A stretch of 49,522 nt of DNA, from positions 1-49,522 of the IMG/VR virus record IMGVR_UViG_3300042895_000849; one strand, given 5' to 3'. Position numbers and translations under genes: made by a program. The DNA comes from a virus. Of the stretch, positions 18,766 to 41,545 are shown piece after piece. Numbering within the stretch: the first letter of the stretch is position 1; each line of letters opens with the position of its first letter. Below the pieces are notes generated by a model. That model worked only from the letters and a program-made list of their open reading frames with translations. It was not told the DNA's origin and made no database searches.

Positions 18766-20571
18766 ATGGCACTTAAAGAAGATAAAATAGGTAATTTTTG
18801 GTCGACTGAAAAAGTTGATCAATTAAACTATAATGCAGAAGAAAATGGTATAGACTATAAAGATGTTGATAATCCTTATCATGAGAATGATCCAGAATTA
18901 AGAAAGGGACAAATTCTATTCGAATACACTGAATGGGAATTAGAGGAGATGAGAAAATGTGCAGAGAATGTTGTTTATTTTGCAAATAAGTATTGTAAAG
19001 TAATGACAGATGATGGTATACAGAAGATAAATCTTAGGGATTACCAGATACAGATCCTAGATCAATATCAAACTCACAGAAAAAATATATTCGTTTCTCC
19101 AAGACAATCAGGTAAAACTATAACTTCCTCCATATTTCTTTTATGGTATTTACTTTTTAATTTTGAAAAGAATGCTATGATTATGGCAAACATTGGAGAT
19201 ACTGCTGCGGAATTAATGGATAAGATCAAAGTTATTATGAAAGGACTTCCTTTCTTCTTAAAGCCAGGTCTAATCGTCTATAATGTAATGACCATGAAGT
19301 TTGATAACGGATGTAGAATAATGGCTAAGACGACAACTAAAACATCGTCTATCGGTTACACAATTCATATGTTATACATGGATGAGTTCGCACACATTAA
19401 CCCTAACTTTATCAATCAGTTCTTTAAATCAGTTTACCCTACTATATCTTCTTCACAGATAGCCAGAGTTATTATAACTTCCACTCCTAACGGAATGAAT
19501 AAATTCTGGGAACTTTATAAAGGAGCAATAGAAGGGGAGAATGAATTTAATCCAATCAGAGTTGAATGGTGGCAAATTCCAAATAGGGATGAGGAATGGA
19601 AAAGGAAAGAAATTGCAGCATTAGGGTCTGAGGAGGATTTTAATCAAGAATATGGCTGCCAATTCCTTTCATCATCAAGACTTCTATTGGATTCTTACAC
19701 ATTAAAAAGATTAAAAAATAGTGAAGAACAATTCATTTTTCACGAACTCTCCCCGTTCGAAAATAGTCCAATAGATTATTCTAGCCTTATATGGCATCCT
19801 AAATTCGATCCCACATCAATTTTTGAAAAGGATGGTCAAAGATTTTATGTTTCAATAGATACAGCAAGTGGTGGAGGAGGAGATTATTCAGTAGCAAATA
19901 TATTTAAGGTTGCTCCTATGCCATCTAATGTCATTAAGAATAAAAAATTCTTTGAGGATGAGAGCGATTTCTTCTGTCTTTTACAAGTTGGTATTTTTAG
20001 ATCTAACACAATAGAGATAGACGAATTTAAAGCTTTGTTAGAGATATTAATAGGAAGTATATTAGGTGTTGATAATACAAGAATAGTTCTAGAGCTTAAT
20101 TATAAAGGGGAAATTCTAATGGATAAACTTTTAGATTGTGAAGAATTCTTTGACGAAATGTTTGTTTATACAAAACATTCTGAAGCTTCGAATAGATTAA
20201 AGCCTGGAATTAAACTAACCGTTAAGAATAAAGAAAAATTCTGCTACGATTTAAAAATAAATACAAGATCTTCTAAAATAATTCCATGTAGTAAAAACGG
20301 AATACACGAATTAGCTAACTTTGGAATAAATCCAAATGGGAGTTTTTCTAGTCAAATAGGTAAAGATGATGAGGCAATGACACTGGTAAATATAAATTGT
20401 ATATTTGATAACGGAGATTTTCAAGAGACAGTTTCTGACCTGTATGATATAATACCAGAAAAATTCAGAAAATTAATGGAAGAAAGGTTAACTGAAAATG
20501 TAGAATCCATTCAAAACAAGACTAATGACCTTTCAAGTTATACTTTCTTAAACGGACTCCTTGATTCTTGA
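18766..20571 (+). CDS. 17: gp17-like large terminase (packaging ATPase-nuclease)
   Basis: A 601-residue protein, near T4 gp17 (610). ATPase: Walker A SPRQSGKT at 111-118 (T4 SRQLGKT type) and Walker B MLYMDEFAH with Asp206-Glu207, followed by the coupling motif ITSTPNG. Nuclease: an RNase H-like domain starting SIDTASGGGGDYS near 364, with later acidic residues. It pumps DNA into the prohead through the portal and cuts concatemers. It starts 10 nt after gene 16. Confidence 0.95.
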   Translation: MALKEDKIGNFWSTEKVDQLNYNAEENGIDYKDVDNPYHENDPELRKGQILFEYTEWELEEMRKCAENVVYFANKYCKVMTDDGIQKINLRDYQIQILDQYQTHRKNIFVSPRQSGKTITSSIFLLWYLLFNFEKNAMIMANIGDTAAELMDKIKVIMKGLPFFLKPGLIVYNVMTMKFDNGCRIMAKTTTKTSSIGYTIHMLYMDEFAHINPNFINQFFKSVYPTISSSQIARVIITSTPNGMNKFWELYKGAIEGENEFNPIRVEWWQIPNRDEEWKRKEIAALGSEEDFNQEYGCQFLSSSRLLLDSYTLKRLKNSEEQFIFHELSPFENSPIDYSSLIWHPKFDPTSIFEKDGQRFYVSIDTASGGGGDYSVANIFKVAPMPSNVIKNKKFFEDESDFFCLLQVGIFRSNTIEIDEFKALLEILIGSILGVDNTRIVLELNYKGEILMDKLLDCEEFFDEMFVYTKHSEASNRLKPGIKLTVKNKEKFCYDLKINTRSSKIIPCSKNGIHELANFGINPNGSFSSQIGKDDEAMTLVNINCIFDNGDFQETVSDLYDIIPEKFRKLMEERLTENVESIQNKTNDLSSYTFLNGLLDS

Positions 20572-20649: not shown

Positions 20650-23600
20650 ATGGCCAAACAAGTTAAACTTGACTTATCCCAATTCAAAGCATCGGGTGTT
20701 TACACATTAGAATTTGATGCTTCGGAAAATATTATCATTAATCCTCAGACGATTAGATTAGTAATAGGTTACTCTAATATTGGACCTTTCAATACTCCAG
20801 TATATTGTCCCGATATTACAACTTTCCAGTCAGTATTTGGGAGTACTGATAAAGCTTTAGAGAAAAAAGGATCATTCTTTCATAGATCTGTTTTAACATG
20901 TTTAGGGAGTGGACCTGTATTTGCTTTAAATCTAAGATCACTTAACAATACCGTAGATACTAACGGAGATCCTGATTACGCTGCTGGTGCTGACGTTGCT
21001 AGATATCGTGCTTTCTCTATGGATTCAGAAGAGCAAAATGGTGCTAATGCAACAGGAGCATATTCAGATCCTTTGACAAATCAGGATAAATTAGTTTCTT
21101 CTTATTACAACAAAGAGAAATTCTGGTTCCCAGACACTAATTATTTCTTAGCAACTGAAGATTCTGCTGGTGCACAACCAGATACAAGAAAATTATTCAG
21201 CCTTGTTAACTTAGGTCAAAATCCAGTAAGTATTATAGTAAGAAAATCTTTAGATTCTAGATTTCCTTTAAGAGGATTTGATATTACAGCTAGAGAATAT
21301 TTTGGAGCTGATAATGTACCTTCTTATATGAATCAATACGATTATCTTTCAGATTGGTTTATTGATGTAATCGTAATTAGTGGAAATTGGACCGATTATC
21401 AAGCTTTAGCTAATGACCCAGTTTATAACACATATTTCACTTCTAAAGGATTTATTAAATCACAAATAGATAATTTCTTATCACAAAATGGAGTTAATAC
21501 TTTATTAACTGTTACTGGTACTATTATTCCTAACTTTACAGACCAAAACGGTACTCTTAGATACATTCAGACATTAATTAACAACCAAACACCAACTACT
21601 GGTATATTCTGTGCAGTTAATGAAGAAGCTTTAGATGATTTATTAGTAAACTCTTCAGTTTTTGATCTAGTTGGTCATCACTTAGTTGATGAAACTACTC
21701 CTGATGCTGATATCACTTCAGTTCCTAGGAATTTAAATTTCTTATCTTATAGCCAAAATCTATTTGCAGATTACACTTACGATAGAAATGTAGACGGTTC
21801 TACTACAGGTACAGAGATTTCTGATTCTGGAGTTTCTCCTTCTACTGGCTTTGATATATTACCAGAAACTGGTACATTATTAATAGATACTAACTACAAT
21901 GTTATAGGAGACGCTGGAATACCTTTCACTGAATTTGATACATATTCTACTACTGCTAGAGATGGGGGATCTATTTATTTAGATACTAAATTTCAAAACC
22001 CAACTCTACACGATACACAAATTACAACTTTAACACAATTCTTAGATACTACGCCAGATTCACCTGCTGAAAGATGGGTATTAGGTAAAGTTACATCTAC
22101 CTTACCAACAGCTGGTTATTTAGGATTCTACGTTGGTGACTTAGTTAAGATTAAGGTAACTGAAGCTAAATTTATTACTAATAACACTTTACCAACAGGT
22201 CTAAAACAACAGGTAAGAATCAGAATGAATCACCCTTTAGTTGGTTCTACTGCTTCTACAACATATGTTGAACCTTGGTACGAAACAAATAAAAGTACAG
22301 TGGATGCTTACCAGATTGGTACTCCAGATTACTTTGATAATGATGATGTTTTCTTCTCACCAGATATCCCAGTAGGTACAGATAGCTATTTAGCTTATGA
22401 AAACTCTCTTATGTACAGAGACTGGACTAAGGGAAATATTGGAGATGGTGATCAAGACTGGAAAGATGATACTGGATCTCTTAAACAATACTTAAAATTT
22501 GAAGTAAATGTAGATAGAGACGGTTATAAAATCCTAGTCTGTAGAGCGTTTTCAGAGGATACCCTCACAACTCCTGAAGCAATTGAAGGATTTGGCGATA
22601 CTTTTATTAGTTCTTTACCTACTGGTACTAATGCAGTTGGAACATACCAATTTAATATCGTTTCAACAACAGGTAACATTAGTGATTATATTGATATTGT
22701 TACTCAATTACAGCCTAACGTTATTGAATTAACTACAGCAATTGCTAATTCTTCAGGAATTAAAGTGGGAGATCTATTAGTTTCTACTGACACTCAAATT
22801 TACGATAATCCATTAACTGAGAATCTTCAGTCAAGATTAACTAGAGTACTTGAGGTTAAAACAGTATCTTCTGCTTCTTCCCCTGGTATTTACACAGTAC
22901 AAGTTAAAACTGAAAGACCTATTAAATTGTATCCAGGTACAACAACAAGAGTTTTGAGCTTTAAAAATATACAAGAATTTGTTACATCTTTCAATTTCAC
23001 TTATCTACCAGGAGCTCAGATTAAAGCTGCTTCTGTACCAAACGGAACAGATACAAGAATGAATGAGATCTTGGACGTACTTTCTAATACAAACTTAGCA
23101 AGAACATTAGCTGATACTGACGTAATCACATTCAGATACATCGTAGATACATTCGACGGAGGTATTCAACCAAACTGTAAATTCCAACTTACTAGACTTG
23201 CTAAAAACAGACAAAAATGTTTAGCAATTTGTAATGTGCCTTCAATGAAGAAATTCTCTGATTCTATTGATCCTAGATTTACTTCAGCACCTACAGCAAC
23301 AGATCCAGCTCCAATTTTACAAGCTAGATATATTGCAGACGGAGGTAACTTAAGTTTGAATCCTTCATTCACGTTCTCTTTACCTGATGAAGACTTAGGA
23401 GCAAAATTCTCAGGATTCTTCTCTCCTTTCTTAACAATCAGAGAGAATGGTAAGAACTTAAACGTTCCACCATCAGCATACGTTTCTAACAACTTCATTC
23501 GTAAATTTATTACAGGTGAACCTTATTCAATCGTAGCTGGTCTTAAAAGAGGTATTATCTCTGCTGGTAACTTAGTTGGTCTTGAGTATGATTTCGATAT

Positions 23601-24051
23601 TGAAGATAGAGAATACTTAGAGCCATTCGGTATCAATCCAATCATCAGAAAAAGAGGTGTTGGTATTGTTATCTACGGTAACCAAACAAGCTACCAAAGA
23701 ACTAACTCAGCATTTAATAACTTACACGTTAGAGACTTATTAATCACTATTGAATCTGCAATAGAGCAAATACTTTCTAACTATGTGTTTGATTTTAACG
23801 AAGACAATGTAAGACTTGAAATTAAAACATTAGTAGACAATTATTTAACTGGAGTAAGATCTGTTGGAGGTATTTATAACTACTTATCTATTATGGACTC
23901 TTCTAATAATACACCTGCAATCATTGATCAAAATATTGGTATTATTGACGTAATTATTGAACCTGCAAGAGGTATTCATAAGTTTATTAATAGAATGACA
24001 GTTACTAGAACAGGTGGTATTGCTTCTGGAGGATTTTTGCAATTTAGTTAA
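20650..24051 (+). CDS. 18: gp18-like contractile tail sheath, oversized
   Basis: A 1133-residue sheath protein; T4 gp18 has 659. The C-terminal 140 residues match the conserved sheath domain: VGIVIYGNQTSYQRTNSAFN, then LHVRDLLITIESAI (T4: AFNRLNVRRLFNVIEKDV), ending in RMTVTRTGGIASGG. The N-terminal region opens with VYTLEFDASENIIINPQ and the LVIGYSNIGPFNTPVY strand usual for sheath. The extra roughly 450 residues fall in the middle (about 120-800), where sheath proteins carry outward-facing domains, so they probably decorate the tail surface. Copies wrap the gp19 tube and contract on infection. Paired tube genes follow. Confidence 0.92.
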   Translation: MAKQVKLDLSQFKASGVYTLEFDASENIIINPQTIRLVIGYSNIGPFNTPVYCPDITTFQSVFGSTDKALEKKGSFFHRSVLTCLGSGPVFALNLRSLNNTVDTNGDPDYAAGADVARYRAFSMDSEEQNGANATGAYSDPLTNQDKLVSSYYNKEKFWFPDTNYFLATEDSAGAQPDTRKLFSLVNLGQNPVSIIVRKSLDSRFPLRGFDITAREYFGADNVPSYMNQYDYLSDWFIDVIVISGNWTDYQALANDPVYNTYFTSKGFIKSQIDNFLSQNGVNTLLTVTGTIIPNFTDQNGTLRYIQTLINNQTPTTGIFCAVNEEALDDLLVNSSVFDLVGHHLVDETTPDADITSVPRNLNFLSYSQNLFADYTYDRNVDGSTTGTEISDSGVSPSTGFDILPETGTLLIDTNYNVIGDAGIPFTEFDTYSTTARDGGSIYLDTKFQNPTLHDTQITTLTQFLDTTPDSPAERWVLGKVTSTLPTAGYLGFYVGDLVKIKVTEAKFITNNTLPTGLKQQVRIRMNHPLVGSTASTTYVEPWYETNKSTVDAYQIGTPDYFDNDDVFFSPDIPVGTDSYLAYENSLMYRDWTKGNIGDGDQDWKDDTGSLKQYLKFEVNVDRDGYKILVCRAFSEDTLTTPEAIEGFGDTFISSLPTGTNAVGTYQFNIVSTTGNISDYIDIVTQLQPNVIELTTAIANSSGIKVGDLLVSTDTQIYDNPLTENLQSRLTRVLEVKTVSSASSPGIYTVQVKTERPIKLYPGTTTRVLSFKNIQEFVTSFNFTYLPGAQIKAASVPNGTDTRMNEILDVLSNTNLARTLADTDVITFRYIVDTFDGGIQPNCKFQLTRLAKNRQKCLAICNVPSMKKFSDSIDPRFTSAPTATDPAPILQARYIADGGNLSLNPSFTFSLPDEDLGAKFSGFFSPFLTIRENGKNLNVPPSAYVSNNFIRKFITGEPYSIVAGLKRGIISAGNLVGLEYDFDIEDREYLEPFGINPIIRKRGVGIVIYGNQTSYQRTNSAFNNLHVRDLLITIESAIEQILSNYVFDFNEDNVRLEIKTLVDNYLTGVRSVGGIYNYLSIMDSSNNTPAIIDQNIGIIDVIIEPARGIHKFINRMTVTRTGGIASGGFLQFS

Positions 24052-24096: not shown

Positions 24097-24669
24097 ATGG
24101 CAGGATTACCACATTATTCAAGTTCGAAAGCTTCGGTTAATAAATTCGAACCCGTTTTCCTTAATCAGTTTGAGGTGACTATTTCACCTCCTGCTGGTGT
24201 TATATCAGTTCAAGGAAATCCTGGTAGCGGAAATATTCTTTTAGAGCAGGTGACCAATATTTCAGGTTTACAAGTGGATCAAAATGCTGGTGAGATCACT
24301 CAACAGTACAAATTTGCTAAAAGATACTATGCTGGAGCAGCTCCACAAAGAACTGGTTTAGATGTTTCAATATCATTCGAAGTTAACCTTGATGATGACA
24401 ATTCAATGTATGTTTTTAAAATACTTCGTCAATGGTCTGATTTAATTTATAATCCTATTACAGGAGCAATGGGTCTTAAGAAAGATTACACAGGAAATAT
24501 TTTAATTAATGTTTTTAATAAACAAGGGGATATTTTCAGAAAGATTAATCTTAAAGATTGTTTCCTTATGTCACCTATAACAGATATGGGATTAAACTAT
24601 ACTCAAGCATCTATTTATAAAATTGATGTACAATGGGCAGTAGATTATTTCGAAGACGTATTTATATAA
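24097..24669 (+). CDS. 19: gp19-like tail tube protein, copy 1
   Basis: A 190-residue tail tube subunit (T4 gp19 has 163). Typical features are a NQFEVTISPP strand near the N-terminus, a TNISGLQVDQNAGEI loop, a central VNLDDDNSMYVFKILRQWSD helix, and the C-terminal DYFEDVFI. Tube rings stack inside the sheath and conduct DNA. It sits directly after the sheath gene as in T4. The following gene is a clear paralog: both begin MAGLPH and share the RQWSDLIYNP and DYFEDVF motifs. Confidence 0.92.
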   Translation: MAGLPHYSSSKASVNKFEPVFLNQFEVTISPPAGVISVQGNPGSGNILLEQVTNISGLQVDQNAGEITQQYKFAKRYYAGAAPQRTGLDVSISFEVNLDDDNSMYVFKILRQWSDLIYNPITGAMGLKKDYTGNILINVFNKQGDIFRKINLKDCFLMSPITDMGLNYTQASIYKIDVQWAVDYFEDVFI

Positions 24670-24681
24670 ATATAAAAGAAA

Positions 24682-25260
24682 ATGGCAGGATTACCACATT
24701 TTAGCTCAGCAAAAGCAGCAGTTCAATTATACGAACCAGTATATCTTAATCAATTCGAGGTTATTATTCAACCTCCTGTTGGTGTAACTCTTCCTCAAGG
24801 AAACGGCGGAAGGTCTTTATTGGTAGAAAATGTACTTTCTGTTTCTGGCTTATCAGTTGATAAAAACCCAGGTGTAATGGAACAAAGGTATAAATTCTCA
24901 AGAAGAAGATATGCAGGTGGTGCAGTTGATGATACTGGTGTAAAATTCAGAATTGAATTTGAAACCAATTTGGATGATAACAACAGCAACTACGTATTTA
25001 AAACTATGCGTCAGTGGTCAGATTTAATCTATAATCCTTTAACAGGTGCTACTGGTATTAAATCTACATATGCTGGTGGAACTTATGTACTTGTATCAAT
25101 ATTCAATAAAGAAGGCGATGTATTTAGAAGAATTAAATTAGTAAATTGCTTTCCTACAGATCAAATAAAAGCAATGGATTTAGATTATACTAACGGAACA
25201 ACTCCGTACAAAATAGCACTTTCATTTAGAGCGGATTATTTCGAAGACGTTTTTAACTAA
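24682..25260 (+). CDS. 19: gp19-like tail tube protein, copy 2
   Basis: A 192-residue paralog of the preceding gene, intact and similar along the whole length (MAGLPHFSSAKAAVQ start, NQFEVIIQPP, RQWSDLIYNP, ending DYFEDVFN). The start lies 12 nt after copy 1 behind an ATATAAATATAAAAG leader. It may build part of the tube (a hetero-tube), act as a tube initiator or terminator such as the gp54/gp3 positions in T4, or serve in a different tail segment. A strong terminator follows, so both copies and the sheath probably form one late unit. Confidence 0.9.
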   Translation: MAGLPHFSSAKAAVQLYEPVYLNQFEVIIQPPVGVTLPQGNGGRSLLVENVLSVSGLSVDKNPGVMEQRYKFSRRRYAGGAVDDTGVKFRIEFETNLDDNNSNYVFKTMRQWSDLIYNPLTGATGIKSTYAGGTYVLVSIFNKEGDVFRRIKLVNCFPTDQIKAMDLDYTNGTTPYKIALSFRADYFEDVFN

Positions 25261-29300: not shown

Positions 29301-29921
29301 ATGGCAGTAAAAAACATTCAAGAATTGGCAGAGAGCTTTATGAGAAGCTCATCAGAAAAAGATTTTGTAGAACTATACAAAAGAATAAAACCTGGATTAT
29401 TAAATCATTGTAAATCTATTTTAATAGAACAGGAAGCTGCAGAAGATGCTGTTTCTAACACAATGGCTAAGATCTGGACTAAGATCACTCAGTATGATTC
29501 AACTAGAGGTAATTTTTCTACATGGGTCTACAATATAGCTAGGAACGAATCTTTAGTTATTAAAAAATGTGAAGATAGGTATATGCCTATTATAAACGAG
29601 ATGGTTAGAAATTCCGATGATTCTGACGATCATGTATTCAGATCAAGTTCAAATGTAGTTCAAGGTGACACCACTTGCGACTATATAACTACTGATAATG
29701 ATGAGATGGAGGATCTTTATGATAATGTTATAGAGAAAATGAGTGACCTACCGGAAATTTATAAAGACATTCTTTATGATAGAGAAATTCTAAGAATGAA
29801 ATATCAAGAGATAGCAGATAAACATGGAATGAAAAAAAGAGCTATAGCTACAAGAATTAGAAGAGCAAGATTAAAAGTCAGAGAAATGTTTCCTGGAGTT
29901 AATTTAACTTTTAATAATTAA
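29301..29921 (+). CDS. ECF-type sigma-70 family sigma factor
   Basis: A 206-residue sigma factor with region 2 at about 25-90 (AEDAVSNTMAKIWTKITQYD, then GNFSTWVYNIARNES) and region 4 at 150-198 (LPEIYKDILYDREILRMKYQ, EIADKHGMKKRAIATRIRRA). These match ECF sigma factors, with a charged linker replacing region 3. It would direct host RNA polymerase to phage promoters. A separate gp55-like factor is encoded at 36811, so this phage carries two sigma factors. By position in an early/middle-type unit it may serve middle transcription, for example the AGTATAATAATA motifs; that link is speculation. Confidence 0.88.
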   Translation: MAVKNIQELAESFMRSSSEKDFVELYKRIKPGLLNHCKSILIEQEAAEDAVSNTMAKIWTKITQYDSTRGNFSTWVYNIARNESLVIKKCEDRYMPIINEMVRNSDDSDDHVFRSSSNVVQGDTTCDYITTDNDEMEDLYDNVIEKMSDLPEIYKDILYDREILRMKYQEIADKHGMKKRAIATRIRRARLKVREMFPGVNLTFNN

Positions 29922-33062: not shown

Positions 33063-33647
33063 ATGATAAAACCTGTTTATACAACAAATCCTGTTCATAT
33101 TAAATATCTAGATTGTAATCCCGCAGTCTATAGGAGGATTAGTTTTCAATCGTGTAATTTAGATATTAAAGAAGGTGCAAACGTTCTATCTACTATATCT
33201 TTATGTGATTTTAAACTTGAATCATTAGGGAGTTCTGAATTAGGTGGTTGCGGTGGTTCATTAAAAAAGAACATAACTTTAAATGCTTTAAGTACCTATA
33301 TACTAACAGCAAGTGAAATTGGACAAGCACAAGGAGAGGTTCAAATGATAGTGGTAAAAGCTACGTACCAAAAAAATCATCGAGAAGAGGATAGACTTGT
33401 ATACTGGGAATATAAAGGAAACACCTACCCAATGCATAATTTAATGATATTAACAGGCAGAACACAAGCAGAAATACCATGGCAAGGGTGGGATTTAGGA
33501 TATTATTCAAACACTCCACCAAGTCCGGTATTTAGCCCACACACATATCCACCAATAGCATCGCCCGATTTATCGTTCGGAGGAATTATGTTCAGTAATC
33601 CTAGCAACACATATAATACTGAACTAGAAATATTTGTTTTTAATTAA
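33063..33647 (+). CDS. unknown beta-rich protein, paralog A
   Basis: A 194-residue protein (MIKPVYTTNPVHIKYLDCNP start). It shares with the next gene an FQ-x-CNL-x-(V/I)-x-x-G-x-x-VL-x-x-ISLCD segment, a (Y/L)PM-x-(N/D)-(L/I)-x-(I/L)LTG segment, GWDL, and a GG(I/M)(M/L)-x-x-NP ending in beta strands. No named family. Probably a small virion decoration or fibre-associated protein, judged by the late-type unit it belongs to. It begins 1 nt after the membrane protein stop. Confidence 0.7.
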   Translation: MIKPVYTTNPVHIKYLDCNPAVYRRISFQSCNLDIKEGANVLSTISLCDFKLESLGSSELGGCGGSLKKNITLNALSTYILTASEIGQAQGEVQMIVVKATYQKNHREEDRLVYWEYKGNTYPMHNLMILTGRTQAEIPWQGWDLGYYSNTPPSPVFSPHTYPPIASPDLSFGGIMFSNPSNTYNTELEIFVFN

Positions 33648-34132
33648 TGGCTACACCACCTATAGTATGTGATACAATACAGTTTGAAGGAGCAATATTT
33701 CAAAGATGTAACTTGAGTGTAATAAAAGGCACTACGGTTCTTAGAGAAATAAGTCTTTGTGATACTAATATAATTTTGAATAATTACACATCTTTTAATG
33801 GGTGCATATACAGTAATTCAAGTCTTATTCTTAATTCTGAAGGATTAGGAGAGGTATCTTTTATAATGATAAAAGCAAGTTACCCATCAACACTTCCAGT
33901 ATATAATAGATTTATTAATATAATTTATAATGGATCATATTTACCAATGTCAGATATAACATTATTAACGGGGAATCCGTCAGATCTTTCCCCATATTTT
34001 TTAGGAAGAGGTTGGGATTTAGATCCAAACGGAAGTGATATTGAATCCCCTTACTTTGATGAAGGAGGTATGTTATTATATAATCCACATTCAGTTAGAG
34101 TAAATGTTGAGGTTATTATTGGGGGAAATTAA
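33647..34132 (+). CDS. unknown beta-rich protein, paralog B
   Basis: A 161-residue paralog of the preceding protein; the ATG overlaps the last base of its TAA. Shared landmarks are FQRCNLSVIKGTTVL, REISLCD, PMSDITLLTG, GWDL and GGMLLYNP. It lacks the Cys-Gly-Gly loop and about 30 residues of paralog A. The tight overlap implies coupled expression and perhaps a heteromer. Confidence 0.7.
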   Translation: MATPPIVCDTIQFEGAIFQRCNLSVIKGTTVLREISLCDTNIILNNYTSFNGCIYSNSSLILNSEGLGEVSFIMIKASYPSTLPVYNRFINIIYNGSYLPMSDITLLTGNPSDLSPYFLGRGWDLDPNGSDIESPYFDEGGMLLYNPHSVRVNVEVIIGGN

Positions 34133-36566: not shown

Positions 36567-36814
36567 TTACGAAGAAAATAATTGAGTCTGTTGGCCAAAA
36601 ATCCGAAGAGGGTATTGGCAACAGACTCAATTTTGTTTTAGATGATTTGAAAGATTGTCTAGCAAAGATAAAGGAATTGGAAACTTCTAGCGAAGAACAC
36701 GGTAAGATAGGTATAGAAACAATTAGAAATTCGAGGATAAATTTGGAAAAATTAAGATTAAATTTAGAAGATCAAATAGAGAAACTCCAAAATAACAGCC
36801 CCGAAGCACAATGA
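36566..36814 (+). CDS. unlisted 82-residue coiled-coil ORF (ATT start or -1 frameshift extension)
   Basis: The frame is open from the A9 stretch ending the previous gene to TGA at 36812-36814. The product, from ITKKIIESVGQKSEEGIGNR through CLAKIKELETSSEEHGK to INLEKLRLNLEDQIEKLQ, is a convincing amphipathic coiled coil. There is no ATG. Options: an ATT start at 36566 overlapping the upstream TAA; a -1 slip at A-AAA-AAG (36557-36563) that would extend the upstream protein to about 861 residues; or a TTG near 36646. Its stop overlaps the gp55-like ATG as ATGA (36811-36814), the classic coupling arrangement, which supports real translation. The hairpin at 36580-36632 lies inside it. Confidence 0.6.
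   Translation: MTKKIIESVGQKSEEGIGNRLNFVLDDLKDCLAKIKELETSSEEHGKIGIETIRNSRINLEKLRLNLEDQIEKLQNNSPEAQ
36580..36640 (+). terminator. 18-bp hairpin with T-rich 3' side (terminator and/or frameshift element)
   Basis: Perfect 14-bp stem from 36580-36593 to 36619-36632 (TTGAGTCTGTTG/CAACAGACTCAA core), one bulged G at 36594, then CCAA/TTGG. TTTTGTTTT follows. It can act as a terminator for the 34230 gene, and it also lies 16 nt after a dnaX-type slippery heptamer. Confidence 0.6.
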
Positions 36815-37167
36815 TATATGTAAAAAACAAAGAGCTTAAAAGAGCTTTACAAGAAAGCAAAGAAGTAGGAAAACTCACATCCGAAACTGTGCAAATGTTT
36901 ACTTTAATAGTAAACGGAATGTCTAAGACCCATTCATACAGAGATCACGAAGATCGCGAAGATTGTATCTCATTCGGATTAGAGGATTTAATAAAATACT
37001 GGAACAGATACGATCCAGCAAAATCTGATAATCCTTTTGCTTTCATTTCGCAAATAGCACATAATGGAATGAAGAAAGGATGGAAAAAAATATATCCACC
37101 TAAAGCTCCTAAAACTATACCATTTTCAAGAATCGTAAGAGAAGAAAATTCCAATTATAATATATAA
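36811..37167 (+). CDS. 55: gp55-like late-transcription sigma factor
   Basis: A 118-residue protein resembling the sigma-2-like core of T4 gp55: NKELKRALQE at the N-terminus (T4 NNKELLQAI), a middle helix MFTLIVNGMSKTHSYRDHED, then DLIKYWNRYDPAKSDNPFAF and ISQIAHNGMKKGWKK (T4 [31 protein letters not shown]). gp55 redirects host RNA polymerase to TATAAATA late promoters. T4 gp55 has 185 residues with a C-terminal sliding-clamp-binding motif; this version stops soon after the core (ending VREENSNYNI) and lacks that tail. It precedes head genes and is coupled to the upstream ORF by ATGA. Confidence 0.82.
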   Translation: MIYVKNKELKRALQESKEVGKLTSETVQMFTLIVNGMSKTHSYRDHEDREDCISFGLEDLIKYWNRYDPAKSDNPFAFISQIAHNGMKKGWKKIYPPKAPKTIPFSRIVREENSNYNI

Positions 37168-37173
37168 TTGTGA

Positions 37174-37659
37174 ATGGACATCAAAAAACTAAAGCCGAAT
37201 GGTAAATGGAAGTCTGGTAAATACTACCCTACTAATCCAGAAAAGTATATTGGTGATATTCATAATATAATTTATAGAAGCTCTTGGGAACAAAGATTTT
37301 GTCAGTATTGTGATATTAATCCCAATATAACTAAATGGAGCTCAGAACCTACAGGTATTCCTTATTGGAGTCCAATTGATAAAAAAGAACATAAATACTT
37401 TGTTGATTATTATATCCAGGTATTAAAAAATAACTCGGTAGAAAATTGGTTAATTGAAATAAAGCCAGAAGATCAGTATGCTTTACATATGAGGCCAAAA
37501 GAGCCTACAGGTAATCTTACGGAAAAGAAAATAAGAAGCTATAATGAAAGACTCAAAACTTGGATCACAAACAGATGTAAGTTTGAAGCAGCAACAAGAT
37601 TTGCAGAATCTAGAGGTTATAAGTTTGGAGCTATAAACGAAACCTTTATAATGCGATGA
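37174..37659 (+). CDS. 4: gp4-like head completion protein
   Basis: A 161-residue protein clearly similar to T4 gp4 (150): GKWKSGKYYPTNPEKYIGD (T4 GKWVPKNISKYRGD), IIYRSSWEQRFCQYCDINPN (T4 ITYRSNWEKFFFEWLDKNPE), IPYWSPIDKKEHKYFVDYYI, a LIEIKPEDQ strand (T4 FIEIKPKKE), and the C-terminal FAESRGYKF (T4 LAEKRGIKF). The E-x-K (IEIKP) with the preceding Asp fits a nuclease-type fold. gp4 completes packaged heads before tail joining. The last codons overlap the next ATG (ATGA). Confidence 0.92.
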   Translation: MDIKKLKPNGKWKSGKYYPTNPEKYIGDIHNIIYRSSWEQRFCQYCDINPNITKWSSEPTGIPYWSPIDKKEHKYFVDYYIQVLKNNSVENWLIEIKPEDQYALHMRPKEPTGNLTEKKIRSYNERLKTWITNRCKFEAATRFAESRGYKFGAINETFIMR

Positions 37660-38249
37660 AACCTTTTAAAACACAATTTGAAGATTATAAATTATCAGTA
37701 TCTGGTCTTTCGTCATTAGCCGAGGATTCTTTTATGCACTGGTTTAAAACATTTGTAAATAGTAAGAGCCAATTTAACCCTTCGAGTTTTTTGTCAGGTA
37801 AAGTTTATTCATTAGAATATAACGACCAATTAGAAAAATCTAAAAAATATATTAATAAAAGACCCATAGTATTCTTTACTGGCTTTAAAAGCTACGAAGA
37901 TAAGACAATATTTTATGGTATAGATTTAATATTGCTGTCTCCTCAATTTAGAATTCCTTTTTTTACAAGAATACAAAGTGTTTATCAAGAAATCATAGAA
38001 AAGAACCAAGAAAAAATCGGCAGGGGGGAAATTAAATCACAGGTTCTGTTAAAAACAGATTACGAAACACTTGACACTATTCTTAAAGGAATAAACTATA
38101 AACATGCTTATAGAGCATGGGATTTAAAAAAAGTTCGTGATGTTGTGGAAATTCCTTACGAAGATTGGACTAGAATAGTATATCTGGATACTAGGTCAAT
38201 TGAAGGGACCCAGTTAAATGAGATATATAAGAAAAATTTACAGATCTAA
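37656..38249 (+). CDS. unknown protein between gp4 and portal
   Basis: A 197-residue protein (MKPFKTQFEDYKLSVSGLSS start). The middle reads SGKVYSLEYNDQLEKS, then RPIVFFTGF, then GIDLILLSPQFRIPFF: a pattern I associate with a phage structural family of the form G-x-x-Y-x-F-x-Y ... P-(L/I)-V ... G-x-(N/D)-L-x-x-L-x-P-x-x-R, whose role I cannot name with confidence. T4 has the baseplate wedge gene 53 after gene 4, and the size is alike, but the sequence does not resemble gp53. It overlaps both neighbours by a few bases, so it belongs to the head gene operon. Confidence 0.72.
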   Translation: MKPFKTQFEDYKLSVSGLSSLAEDSFMHWFKTFVNSKSQFNPSSFLSGKVYSLEYNDQLEKSKKYINKRPIVFFTGFKSYEDKTIFYGIDLILLSPQFRIPFFTRIQSVYQEIIEKNQEKIGRGEIKSQVLLKTDYETLDTILKGINYKHAYRAWDLKKVRDVVEIPYEDWTRIVYLDTRSIEGTQLNEIYKKNLQI

Positions 38250-39892
38250 TGGCTGGATTTACAGATGATAAAAAAACATTCTTTAGTGCTATTATAGATA
38301 GCGTTAAAAAAGTTGGCAGTTTTGGTATGTCTTATGAGGATCTAGTGATTAAAAATTCACAAGCAGTAGGTGTAAGCGAAGCACAATTCCTACAAAAAGG
38401 AGGTATTAAAGATGAGGCTTTCTTATTCGGTTTAAGAAGAGCAGATACAACAACTAAGCAGTATATAGCTTATTTTGATAAAGATTATAAAAATAAAAAG
38501 CATTACTTACAAGGTTTTTCACAGAATCCAGAGATTGAATTTATTTTAGATACTATTTGTGATGAAGCTATAGTGTATGACGAAAGAAACTTTTGGGCTT
38601 ACTTCTCATTTATGCAGCACGATGATGTTGATGAAGAGACATACGATAAAGTACAAAAAAGATACAAAGAGATCTATAATCTATTTGGATTTAACCAAGA
38701 CATATTAGCTTGGCACTTATTCAGAAAATTCTTATCCGATGGTATATTATCTTTTGAAATAGTATTTGATAAGAAAGGTAAAAATATAGTAGGTTTTAAG
38801 GAATTAGATCCTGCTTCTCTTGTACCAACAGTAGAAGCACAGCCTGACGGATCATTTATAGACATATGGATTCAATATCCAGATAACCCATCTTTGACTA
38901 GAAAGCTTTATGATTCGCAGATAATTTATATAAGTTATGCTAAAGGTGGAGGTACAGCAGGTAGAGTAAGTTATACTGAAAGATTAATTAGATCATTCAA
39001 CTTACTTAGAATTATGGAACACACCAGAATCATCTGGAACGTAATGAATTCTTCTTATCGTATGGCAATGACAGTTCCAATTGGAACTAAATCTCCGCAA
39101 AAAGCTAAACAGACTCTTGGAGAGTTAATGTCAATCTATAAAGAAGATATTAGATTAAATACTGATAGTGGAGAATTATCAGTAGACGGAAAACCCAAAA
39201 TACAATTCTTTAAGAATTATTTAATGCCTTCATCTCCTAACGGAACACCAGATATTCAGCCTTTAGCTGGAGCAGGTGATGCTACCGCATTCTCCGATAC
39301 TACGGTATTAAAATATTTTGCAAATAAATTAAGGATGGATTCTAAAATACCTGCTACTAGATTCGGTAGGGAAGAATCAGGATCAGAAGGTACTATTACA
39401 TTTACTGCAGAAGGATTAGACCAAGAAGAAATTAGATTCGGTAAATTTATAAACAGATTAAGGTCAATATACCAAGATATTTTAATGAAACCATTATGGG
39501 TTCAATTCTGTTTAGATTTTCCTAATCTAAAAACCGATTACATTCTAAAATCTGAATTCGGACTAGACTACGTTAAGGAAAATATGTTTAGAGAAGCCAA
39601 GGATATGGAGGTAATGGTAGCAAGAAAGGATCAGGTTATAAAAATTTCAGGTCTACTAAATTCCGAAGGTAAAAAATACTTCAGTATGGATTTCTTAGTT
39701 GATAGATTTCTAGGAATGAATAACCAAGATATTTCCGATAACAAAAAAGCTAAAGAAGAAGCTGCTGATAAGAAAAAAGAAGCTGCAGGAGCAACAGGCG
39801 GAACACCAACTGAAGACGAAGCACCAGCTGAAGGAGCAACAGGTGAAGCACCAGCTGAAGAAGAAGAAGGAGGAGAAGAATTTACACTATAA
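38249..39892 (+). CDS. 20: gp20-like portal protein, copy 1
   Basis: A 547-residue portal protein (T4 gp20 has 524). Landmarks: EIEFILDTICDEAIVYD (T4 EVDNAVSEIVSDAIVYED), FNLLRIMEHTRIIWNV (T4 ANQLKLLEDAVVIYRI), LGELMSIYKEDIRLNTDSGE, a long loop, then EEIRFGKFINRLRSIYQDIL (T4 ELTFAKFIRELQHKFEEVF) and MKPLWVQFCLDF. It forms the dodecameric ring through which DNA is packaged and ejected. The C-terminus has a Gly-Ala-Thr/Glu-rich tail (EGATGEAPAEEEEGG) absent in T4. A second complete portal gene follows after 6 nt. Confidence 0.93.
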   Translation: MAGFTDDKKTFFSAIIDSVKKVGSFGMSYEDLVIKNSQAVGVSEAQFLQKGGIKDEAFLFGLRRADTTTKQYIAYFDKDYKNKKHYLQGFSQNPEIEFILDTICDEAIVYDERNFWAYFSFMQHDDVDEETYDKVQKRYKEIYNLFGFNQDILAWHLFRKFLSDGILSFEIVFDKKGKNIVGFKELDPASLVPTVEAQPDGSFIDIWIQYPDNPSLTRKLYDSQIIYISYAKGGGTAGRVSYTERLIRSFNLLRIMEHTRIIWNVMNSSYRMAMTVPIGTKSPQKAKQTLGELMSIYKEDIRLNTDSGELSVDGKPKIQFFKNYLMPSSPNGTPDIQPLAGAGDATAFSDTTVLKYFANKLRMDSKIPATRFGREESGSEGTITFTAEGLDQEEIRFGKFINRLRSIYQDILMKPLWVQFCLDFPNLKTDYILKSEFGLDYVKENMFREAKDMEVMVARKDQVIKISGLLNSEGKKYFSMDFLVDRFLGMNNQDISDNKKAKEEAADKKKEAAGATGGTPTEDEAPAEGATGEAPAEEEEGGEEFTL

Positions 39893-39898
39893 AAAAAT

Positions 39899-41545
39899 AT
39901 GGCAGGATTTCTAGATAATATTGGAAAGTTTAATCCTAATATCTCAAGGATATTAAAATCAATTAGTGGTTTAGGATCTTTTGGTATGGAATATAAAGAT
40001 ATGGTAATAGAGGATTCTATGGCTATAGGTATTTCAGAAGCTAATATGAGAGAAAGATTTGGATTCTCTGGAGATGACGAAGATTTTATTTATAGTATAG
40101 CTGCACAGGATACCACAAATAAAAAATACATAGCATACTTTGATAAAGATTATCCATTCAAAAGAGATTTTCTTAGAACATTTGCACTTAATGCTGAAAT
40201 AGAATACATCTTAGACACTATTTGTGATGAAGGTATAGTTTACGATGAGAAGAACTTCTTCTGTCATCCTGCAACCATTAATATGGAATTAAAGGATGAC
40301 GTATTAAAATCCTTAAGAGGCAATTTCAGAAAACTTTATGTCCTTCATAATTTTTGCAACGGTATAACGGGATGGCAATATTTTAGACAATTAATTGTTG
40401 AGGGATTTTTGGCATTTGAAATCATTTATTCTAGTGACGGAAAAGAAATTGTGGGATTTAAAGAATTAGATGCTATAAGTCTTACACCAGCTATAGAAAA
40501 AAAACCTGATGGCACAAGAGAAACTATCTGGTGGCAGTACTATGGTGAAACTACTAGACAAAGAAGATTATTAGATGCACAGGTGATTTATATCTCTTAC
40601 TCTAAAGCTAATTCAGTTTCAAGAATATCTTATACGGAAAGATTAATTAGATCTTTCAATTTGCTTAAGATTATGGAGCATTCAAGGATTATCTGGAACG
40701 TAATGAATGCCCAGTACAGAATTAAAATGACAGTTCCTATCGGAAGTAAAGCTCCACAAAAAGCTAAAGAGACTTTAGGAGAACTTATGTCAGTTTACAA
40801 AGAGGATATTAAACTCGATACCACATCAGGTGAATTATCTATAAATGGAAGACCCGATTTACAATTTTATAAAAATTATCTTTTTCCACAAAGTGGTGGC
40901 GAATCAGTAAAAGTGGAAACAATTAACGGACAAGGACCAAATCTGAACGTAATGGATTCTGTGGTTTATTTCTATAATAAATTAAGACAGGATTCAAAAA
41001 TTCCATACAATAGATTCTCTTCTAGATTCGGTGTTAGTAGTAGCAATACATTTAAATCTGGTGCAGATGGTGCAGAAAGGGATGAAGTTAGATTTTCTAA
41101 ATTTATAACAAGACTAAGATCTATCTTTCAGGAAATTATGGTTAAGCCATTATGGATCCAAATGTGTTTAGAATTTCCACATCTTAAAGACGATGCAGAA
41201 TTTAGAAGTCAAATAGGTGTTAAGTTTGAAAGCGATAACATGTTTGGTGAATCTAGAGAGATTGAACAACTAATTAAAAAAGTAGATTTTGTAACTGCTT
41301 TAGGAGAGGTAAAAGAAACAATAAATGAAGAAGAAGTTCAATATTTCAATCAGGATTACTTAATAGAAAGATGGTTAGATTTATCTAATGATGATATTAA
41401 GATGAACAAATTTTATGTTAAAAAAGCAGAGGAGGAAGTAAAAGCAGGAGCAACTGGAGCAGCAGAAGGAGCAACTGGAGCAGCAGAAGGAGCAACGGGA
41501 GCAGAAGGTGAAACTGGAGCAGAAGAAGAAGAAGCATCTATTTAA
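39899..41545 (+). CDS. 20: gp20-like portal protein, copy 2
   Basis: A 548-residue paralog of the preceding portal, collinear over its whole length: EIEYILDTICDEGIVYD, SYTERLIRSFNLLKIMEH, IIWNVMNAQYRIKMTVPIG, GELMSVYKEDIKLDTTSGEL, RDEVRFSKFITRLRSIFQ, then MVKPLWIQMCLEFPHLK. All portal motifs are intact, so it is not a decaying copy. The two differ most in the loop after LQF(F/Y)KNYL and at the C-terminus, which here is collagen-like (GATGAAEGATGAAEGATG). A hetero-oligomeric portal, alternate portals or a neck function are possible. Confidence 0.93.
   Translation: MAGFLDNIGKFNPNISRILKSISGLGSFGMEYKDMVIEDSMAIGISEANMRERFGFSGDDEDFIYSIAAQDTTNKKYIAYFDKDYPFKRDFLRTFALNAEIEYILDTICDEGIVYDEKNFFCHPATINMELKDDVLKSLRGNFRKLYVLHNFCNGITGWQYFRQLIVEGFLAFEIIYSSDGKEIVGFKELDAISLTPAIEKKPDGTRETIWWQYYGETTRQRRLLDAQVIYISYSKANSVSRISYTERLIRSFNLLKIMEHSRIIWNVMNAQYRIKMTVPIGSKAPQKAKETLGELMSVYKEDIKLDTTSGELSINGRPDLQFYKNYLFPQSGGESVKVETINGQGPNLNVMDSVVYFYNKLRQDSKIPYNRFSSRFGVSSSNTFKSGADGAERDEVRFSKFITRLRSIFQEIMVKPLWIQMCLEFPHLKDDAEFRSQIGVKFESDNMFGESREIEQLIKKVDFVTALGEVKETINEEEVQYFNQDYLIERWLDLSNDDIKMNKFYVKKAEEEVKAGATGAAEGATGAAEGATGAEGETGAEEEEASI

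What the first reader, a model, noticed from the sequence alone, without database searches (positions are those of the whole stretch)
38249..41545. Two intact, tandem portal protein genes
Tailed phages normally have one portal gene, because one dodecamer sits at one vertex. Here two full-length gp20 homologs of 547 and 548 residues lie 6 nt apart with every portal motif preserved in both. They diverge mainly in the loop after the LQF(F/Y)KNYL motif and in the C-terminal tails. Purifying selection on both copies suggests two functions, such as a mixed ring, alternative portals for different capsids, or one copy recruited to the neck.
Basis: partly seen in the sequence, partly recalled or inferred. 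Interest (0 to 1): 0.85.

Follow-up and report, generated by a model that had tools for sequence, protein, structure and literature searches.

The report
Conserved two-gene portal in phage clade
A whole clade of uncultured T4-like phages carries two different, both intact genes for the ring through which DNA enters and leaves the virus head, where known phages have one, and the same clade also carries a doubled tail-tube gene, which suggests that the phage's DNA channel is built from two kinds of subunit instead of one.

Summary
Two full-length gp20-type portal genes (547 and 548 aa, 48% identical) lie 6 nt apart at 38249-41545. They are not an assembly artefact. The pair, in the same order and 2-23 nt apart, occurs as 92 distinct protein pairs in IMG/VR; every lone copy sits at a contig end. 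A tree gives one duplication: A clade 100/98, B clade 100/98, A+B 100/95. The sister clade (E) and the next ones out (D, C) have a single portal at the same locus. Both copies are under strong purifying selection (dN/dS about 0.02) and diverged equally from the sister. They stay alike in the stem and outer clip, and differ in the channel-facing loops and C-terminus. Unexpected: the tail-tube gene was also duplicated in tandem, on the same branch. All 25 two-portal contigs with an intact tube region have two tubes; all 29 single-portal contigs checked have one. Terminase is single, and so is the capsid protein where found. Best explanation: a hetero-oligomeric portal ring (A and B in one dodecamer), probably with a matching two-subunit tail tube. 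This is inferred, not shown (about 0.55). Rivals: alternative homo-rings, or one copy recruited elsewhere. No report of a two-gene portal was found in the papers searched.

The parts
38249..39892 (+). Portal A (547 aa), gp20-type portal, first gene of the pair
   Evidence: orthologues in 92 distinct pairs
39899..41545 (+). Portal B (548 aa), gp20-type portal, second gene of the pair
   Evidence: 48% identical to A
39224..39298 (+). Portal A residues 326-350: inner clip loop and channel loop, one of the main A/B differences
   Evidence: 4 of 10 paralogue-diagnostic sites fall in the inner clip
39347..39424 (+). Portal A tunnel loop (residues 367-392), net charge -3 to 0 in all 92 pairs
40997..41080 (+). 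Portal B tunnel loop (residues 367-394), net charge +1 or +2 in all 92 pairs
37656..38249 (+). gp2-like DNA end protector, immediately upstream of portal A (last base of this ORF is the first base of portal A); same position in single-portal relatives
   Evidence: PHROG 429 E 3.6e-12; synteny
37174..37659 (+). gp4-like head completion protein (TnsA-like nuclease fold)
   Evidence: PHROG 218 E 5e-44, Pfam PF08722
24097..24669 (+). Tail tube 1 (190 aa)
   Evidence: PHROG 45 tail tube E 1.7e-9; follows the sheath gene; duplicated only in two-portal phages
24682..25260 (+). Tail tube 2 (192 aa), tandem paralogue of tube 1, 56% identical
20650..24051 (+). Tail sheath (1133 aa), single
   Evidence: PHROG 34521 and 23; no paralogue in the census
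18766..20571 (+). Terminase large subunit, single copy
   Evidence: PHROG, PF03237 E 3e-21; one copy in each two-portal contig tested

Best explanation
The two genes are A and B paralogues from one tandem duplication of a gp20-type portal. Most likely both proteins co-assemble into one portal ring at the single portal vertex, probably six A and six B alternating, so the ring has 6-fold instead of 12-fold symmetry. The shared stem and outer clip would hold the ring together and present one docking face to terminase and neck. The diverged inner clip, channel and tunnel loops would give the channel two kinds of loop. The tandem tail-tube pair probably does the same in the tail (two-subunit tube). 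SHOWN: the pair, its single origin, its universal retention, purifying selection on both copies, the pattern of conserved and diverged domains, opposite tunnel-loop charge, and co-duplication of the tube. INFERRED: co-assembly in one ring, the 6+6 stoichiometry, and the functional link to the tube.
For: (1) The pair is retained as 92 distinct protein pairs, always A then B, 2-23 nt apart, as expected for co-expressed subunits of one complex. (2) Mirror-image A and B trees with similar branch lengths; A-B distance correlation 0.97 among close pairs against 0.85-0.92 with neighbouring genes. (3) dN/dS 0.018 and 0.025. Both copies are about equally far from the single-copy sister (0.54 and 0.52 identity in the core), so neither is the unchanged original. 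(4) Stem 1 (0.82) and outer clip (0.69) are the most alike between A and B of one genome; channel loop (0.26) and tunnel loop (0.34) are among the least. Fixed differences concentrate in the inner clip (4 of 10 sites in 30 of 533 columns); in T4 the clip strands form the inter-subunit sheet (PMC4493910). (5) The tunnel loop is net negative or zero in A and positive in B in all 92 pairs; among 490 windows only those over this loop show this. T4 tunnel loops touch their neighbours and help set the ring size (PMC4493910). (6) One terminase in each of five two-portal contigs and one Gp23 capsid gene in each contig where it was found point to one head type and one motor. (7) The tail tube was duplicated on the same branch.
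Against: No structure, proteomics or interaction data. Structure predictions failed (pLDDT 37 and 38), so no interface could be modelled. The A/B tunnel-loop charge anticorrelation vanishes under independent contrasts (r = -0.07), so there is no sign of repeated compensatory change. Co-retention and co-conservation would also fit two separate homo-rings that are both essential. Domain limits were carried over from T4 gp20 by a distant alignment.
Confidence: 0.55

Rival explanations
1. Two alternative homo-dodecameric portals: A builds one kind of head-tail particle (perhaps with tube 1) and B another (perhaps with tube 2), or they are used at different stages.
For: Both copies are complete and both keep clip and stem; tubes are doubled in the same genomes; opposite loop charge could serve self-sorting.
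Against: One terminase, one Gp23-type capsid gene where found and one sheath in the window; adjacent co-oriented genes give no sign of differential expression; no lineage has lost one copy, although an optional particle type could be lost.
Confidence: 0.17
2. One copy remains the portal; the other forms a second ring or adaptor (neck or head-internal connector) stacked on it.
For: Divergence in clip loops and C-terminal crown.
Against: A recruited copy should diverge faster or lose the clip surface for the motor; both are equally constrained, equally distant from the single-copy sister and share the outer clip and stem.
Confidence: 0.13
3. The second copy is an assembly factor or dosage variant (initiator, chaperone-like partner, decoy), not a structural member of the ring.
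For: Portals nucleate head assembly, so an initiator variant is imaginable.
Against: 48% identity with fixed differences excludes pure dosage; full domain set and dN/dS about 0.02 in both copies.
Confidence: 0.08
4. Assembly artefact, strain mixture or decaying duplicate.
For: One contig with a frameshifted B (L324) and one with a stop codon in A (L029).
Against: 92 distinct pairs from many metagenomes, reciprocal monophyly, strong purifying selection, no other broken copies seen.
Confidence: 0.01

Closest known systems
T4 gp20 portal (PF07230; PDB 3ja7)
   Same: Same family by profile over the wing, stem, clip and crown region; gp2- and gp4-like genes lie directly upstream.
   Different: T4 and the other gp20-type phages searched have one portal gene that makes a homo-dodecamer; here two diverged genes are both kept.
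Single-portal relatives: clade E (L581, L582), clade D (L280 and relatives), clade C (LR756500, 462 kb phage), Lak phages
   Same: Related portals (about 33-55% identical), in L140, L280 and L279 at the same place behind gp4- and gp2-like genes.
   Different: One portal and one tail tube each.
Hetero-oligomeric rings from paralogous subunits (Rvb1/Rvb2 is a solved two-paralogue case, PMC4706439; proteasome, CCT and V-ATPase rings from general knowledge)
   Same: Works-like analogy: duplication of a homo-ring subunit, both copies kept, interface conserved, lumen-facing parts diverged.
   Different: Not homologous; a mixed ring is not demonstrated here.
Phage T5 tail tube pb6 (trimeric ring of a doubled tube fold; from general knowledge)
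   Same: Lowers tube symmetry from 6 to 3 by duplication.
   Different: There the duplication is fused in one gene; here two tandem genes.

Membership tests
T4-type portal protein (gp20, PF07230) | Profile match over the portal domain above the curated cut-off | tested here: met
   A 199 bits and B 207 bits against a cut-off of 22.9
T4-type portal protein (gp20, PF07230) | Wing, stem, clip, channel loop, tunnel loop and crown segments all present | tested here: met
   Alignment to T4 gp20 covers every domain in both copies
T4-type portal protein (gp20, PF07230) | Portal locus next to head completion genes | tested here: met
   gp4- and gp2-like genes directly upstream, as in relatives
T4-type portal protein (gp20, PF07230) | Forms a dodecameric ring at one vertex | not testable with these tools
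   No structural or biochemical data; AF2 monomer models were too poor to use
Single-gene homo-dodecameric portal (the usual arrangement) | One portal gene per genome | tested here: not met
   Two PF07230 genes in the window and in each of the two-portal contigs checked, up to 230 kb
Hetero-oligomeric ring | Both paralogues in one ring | not testable with these tools
   Only indirect support
Phage tail tube (gp19-like; 24097-25260) | Tail-tube profile match and position after the sheath gene | tested here: met
   First copy: PHROG 45 E 1.7e-9 and PHROG 3629 E 5e-7; second copy: PHROG 3629 E 2.6e-4; the Pfam gp19 match of the second copy is below cut-off

The most novel reading that the evidence does not exclude
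This phage clade has converted its whole DNA conduit from homo- to hetero-oligomeric: an A6B6 portal and a two-subunit tail tube, both created by tandem duplication on the same evolutionary branch, so that the channel has 6-fold and 3-fold symmetry. To my knowledge it would be the first portal built from two proteins.
Probability: 0.45. Interest if true: 0.88.

Novelty: new variant of a known kind. Interest (0 to 1): 0.76.

Why it matters
The 12-fold portal facing a 5-fold vertex, a 5-fold motor and a 6-fold tail is a classic symmetry-mismatch puzzle, and the portal has been taken to be made of one protein. A natural two-gene portal kept across a large clade would let the number and position of working channel loops be tested subunit by subunit. 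The simultaneous doubling of the tail tube links portal and tube evolution. The single-portal sister clade gives a ready control.

Tried and rejected
Assembly duplication or strain mixture: rejected (92 distinct pairs, reciprocal monophyly). Recent dosage duplication: rejected (48% identity; A-B dS 1.38). Gene conversion: no sign, since A and B are reciprocally monophyletic. Two capsid or motor systems: one terminase in each of five two-portal contigs; the Gp23 match is single in each contig that has it, the two pieces in G002 lying in one frame. AlphaFold2 of A and B with 8-sequence alignments gave pLDDT 37 and 38 and was not used; no fold search was run on such models. Tunnel-loop charge compensation: the raw r = -0.83 is explained by the split into two sub-clades (independent contrasts r = -0.07), so only the fixed opposite sign is claimed. 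A second portal in the 735-kb phage LR756501: only a 58-position match at 22 bits, not a gene copy. Literature searches for two-gene or hetero-oligomeric portals found nothing; only an open-access library was searched. A genome-wide burst of duplication: a self-BLAST census of three two-portal contigs and one D contig found only the portal and tube pairs shared by all three and absent from D.

Full report
OBSERVATION. The window (an IMG/VR virus record of 49,522 bases) encodes two complete portal proteins, A at 38249-39892 and B at 39899-41545. Both score far above the Pfam cut-off for Portal_T4 and match PHROG 213. They are 48% identical. The gap is 6 nt, and A itself starts on the last base of the upstream gene, so the genes sit in one tight operon.

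HOW UNUSUAL. tblastn of B against 50,697 GenBank phage records gave matches in 2,053 records and 2,055 places; for A, 1,184 records and 1,186 places. Among the listed records only LR756501 and LR756503 show two places. In LR756501, the one searched by profile, the second match is 58 profile positions at 22 bits, not a portal gene. No match reached 60% identity, so the clade appears to have no cultured or annotated member in that collection; the tool notes that records very near the window may be left out.

DISTRIBUTION. Scans of IMG/VR with several queries gave 307 loci in which an A-type gene is followed by a B-type gene (several loci may come from one contig). They include 92 distinct protein pairs, with spacing 2-23 nt and never the reverse order. 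In the 14 loci with only one of the two, the contig ends within about 230 nt of the match on the side of the missing partner. Exceptions in quality: one frameshifted B (L324) and one A with an in-frame stop (L029). Contigs of 154-230 kb have exactly these two PF07230 genes.

ORIGIN. A maximum-likelihood tree (IQ-TREE, bootstrap/SH-aLRT) gives A 100/98, B 100/98 and A+B 100/95. The sister is a single-portal clade E (99/88), followed by single-portal clades D and C (an earlier quick tree agrees on A, B and A+B). Singles were confirmed by profile search of long contigs: LR756500 462 kb, D contigs 252-271 kb, E contig 238 kb. Gene order gp4-like, gp2-like, portal is the same in LR756500, L280 and L279. 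So a single portal was duplicated in place, once, and both copies have been co-inherited since.

SELECTION. Median dN/dS (0.1<dS<1) is 0.018 for A and 0.025 for B, like the gp4-like neighbour (0.015) and well below the gp2-like neighbour (0.090). Identity to clade E over the core is 0.54 for A and 0.52 for B. Neither copy is relaxed and neither is the unchanged ancestor.

WHERE THEY DIFFER. With T4 gp20 domain limits (PMC4493910), A and B of the same genome are most alike in stem 1 (0.82) and outer clip (0.69), and among the least alike in channel loop (0.26), tunnel loop (0.34) and crown (0.27). Of ten sites fixed differently in A and B, four lie in the 30-column inner clip, where 0.6 would be expected. 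One of these is the position of T4 T349 (P in A, T in B), whose SPP1 counterpart affects ATPase stimulation and packaging (PMC4493910). Some single-portal D phages also carry P there, so it is not diagnostic of lost function. The tunnel loop is negative or neutral in A and positive in B in all 92 pairs, and no other part of the alignment shows such a fixed opposition. Independent contrasts show no repeated co-change, so this is a fixed difference and not evidence of ongoing compensation.

THE SECOND DUPLICATION. The window also has two tandem tail-tube genes behind the sheath gene (24097-24669 and 24682-25260, 56% identical). In a search with tube 1, all 24 two-portal contigs (25 with the window; a few are near-identical) that contain an intact tube region have two tubes. 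One more is cut at the contig edge and four lack the region. All 29 single-portal records in which the gene was found have one (8 C, 12 D, 3 E, 6 other phages). With clade E tubes included, tube 1 (80/83), tube 2 (80/75) and both together (89/89) are clades. Support is moderate, but it places the tube duplication on the same branch as the portal duplication. Terminase is single in five two-portal contigs. The Gp23 capsid gene is single in every contig that holds it. A self-comparison of G003, G016, the window and D contig G012 found only the portal and tube pairs common to the three two-portal contigs and absent from G012.

MECHANISM. Two facts drive the inference. First, with one terminase and one capsid gene, neither portal copy has been lost in any relative seen with the region intact. 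Second, the protein that continues the same DNA channel in the tail was doubled on the same branch. The simplest account is a switch of both rings from one to two subunit types, the known fate of duplicated ring subunits: interfaces are kept and lumen loops specialise. For the portal this would be a mixed dodecamer, most simply alternating A6B6. That step is inferred. Separate homo-rings, or recruitment of one copy to another layer, are not excluded. Structure prediction was tried and failed, probably for lack of alignment depth (8 sequences).

VERDICT. The two-portal arrangement is real, ancient and conserved. It appears undescribed in the literature searched and is coupled to a tail-tube duplication. 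The proteins are ordinary members of the gp20 portal family by sequence; the two-gene arrangement is the new variant.

Noticed in passing
24097-24669 and 24682-25260: Tandem tail-tube paralogues (56% identical), duplicated only in the phages that have two portals.
   Followed up: yes
33063-33647 and 33647-34132: A further adjacent pair of related small proteins of unknown family (29% identical), with counterparts in G003 (102300-103528); only one counterpart was found in G016.
   Followed up: partly
29301-29921 and 36811-37167: Two sigma-70-like proteins in one phage, one with regions 2 and 4, one with region 2 only, the latter just upstream of the head-completion and portal genes; a 124-aa ORF sits in the same place in LR756500.
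   Followed up: no
247-1188: Cluster of ten tRNA genes in under 1 kb.
   Followed up: no
portal C-termini: 39745-39889 and 41438-41542: Both portals end in low-complexity tails rich in G, A, T and E (collagen-like GATGAEGATGA repeats) that vary quickly between relatives.
   Followed up: partly
L140 (LR756500) and its record: The terminase gene of LR756500 matches in separate pieces, and ORFs with shared sequence that look like homing endonucleases flank the portal region, which suggests intron or homing-endonuclease invasion.
   Followed up: no
L029:1542-3160 and L324:8640-10400: Single broken copies: an in-frame stop in portal A right after FFKNYLMP (L029) and a frameshift in portal B (L324); sequencing error or rare variants.
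   Followed up: partly
L278, L280: Portal-bearing phage contigs of 607 kb and 254 kb are binned in MAGs labelled SAR324 and Bacteroidetes, which may hint at hosts or be mis-binning.
   Followed up: no
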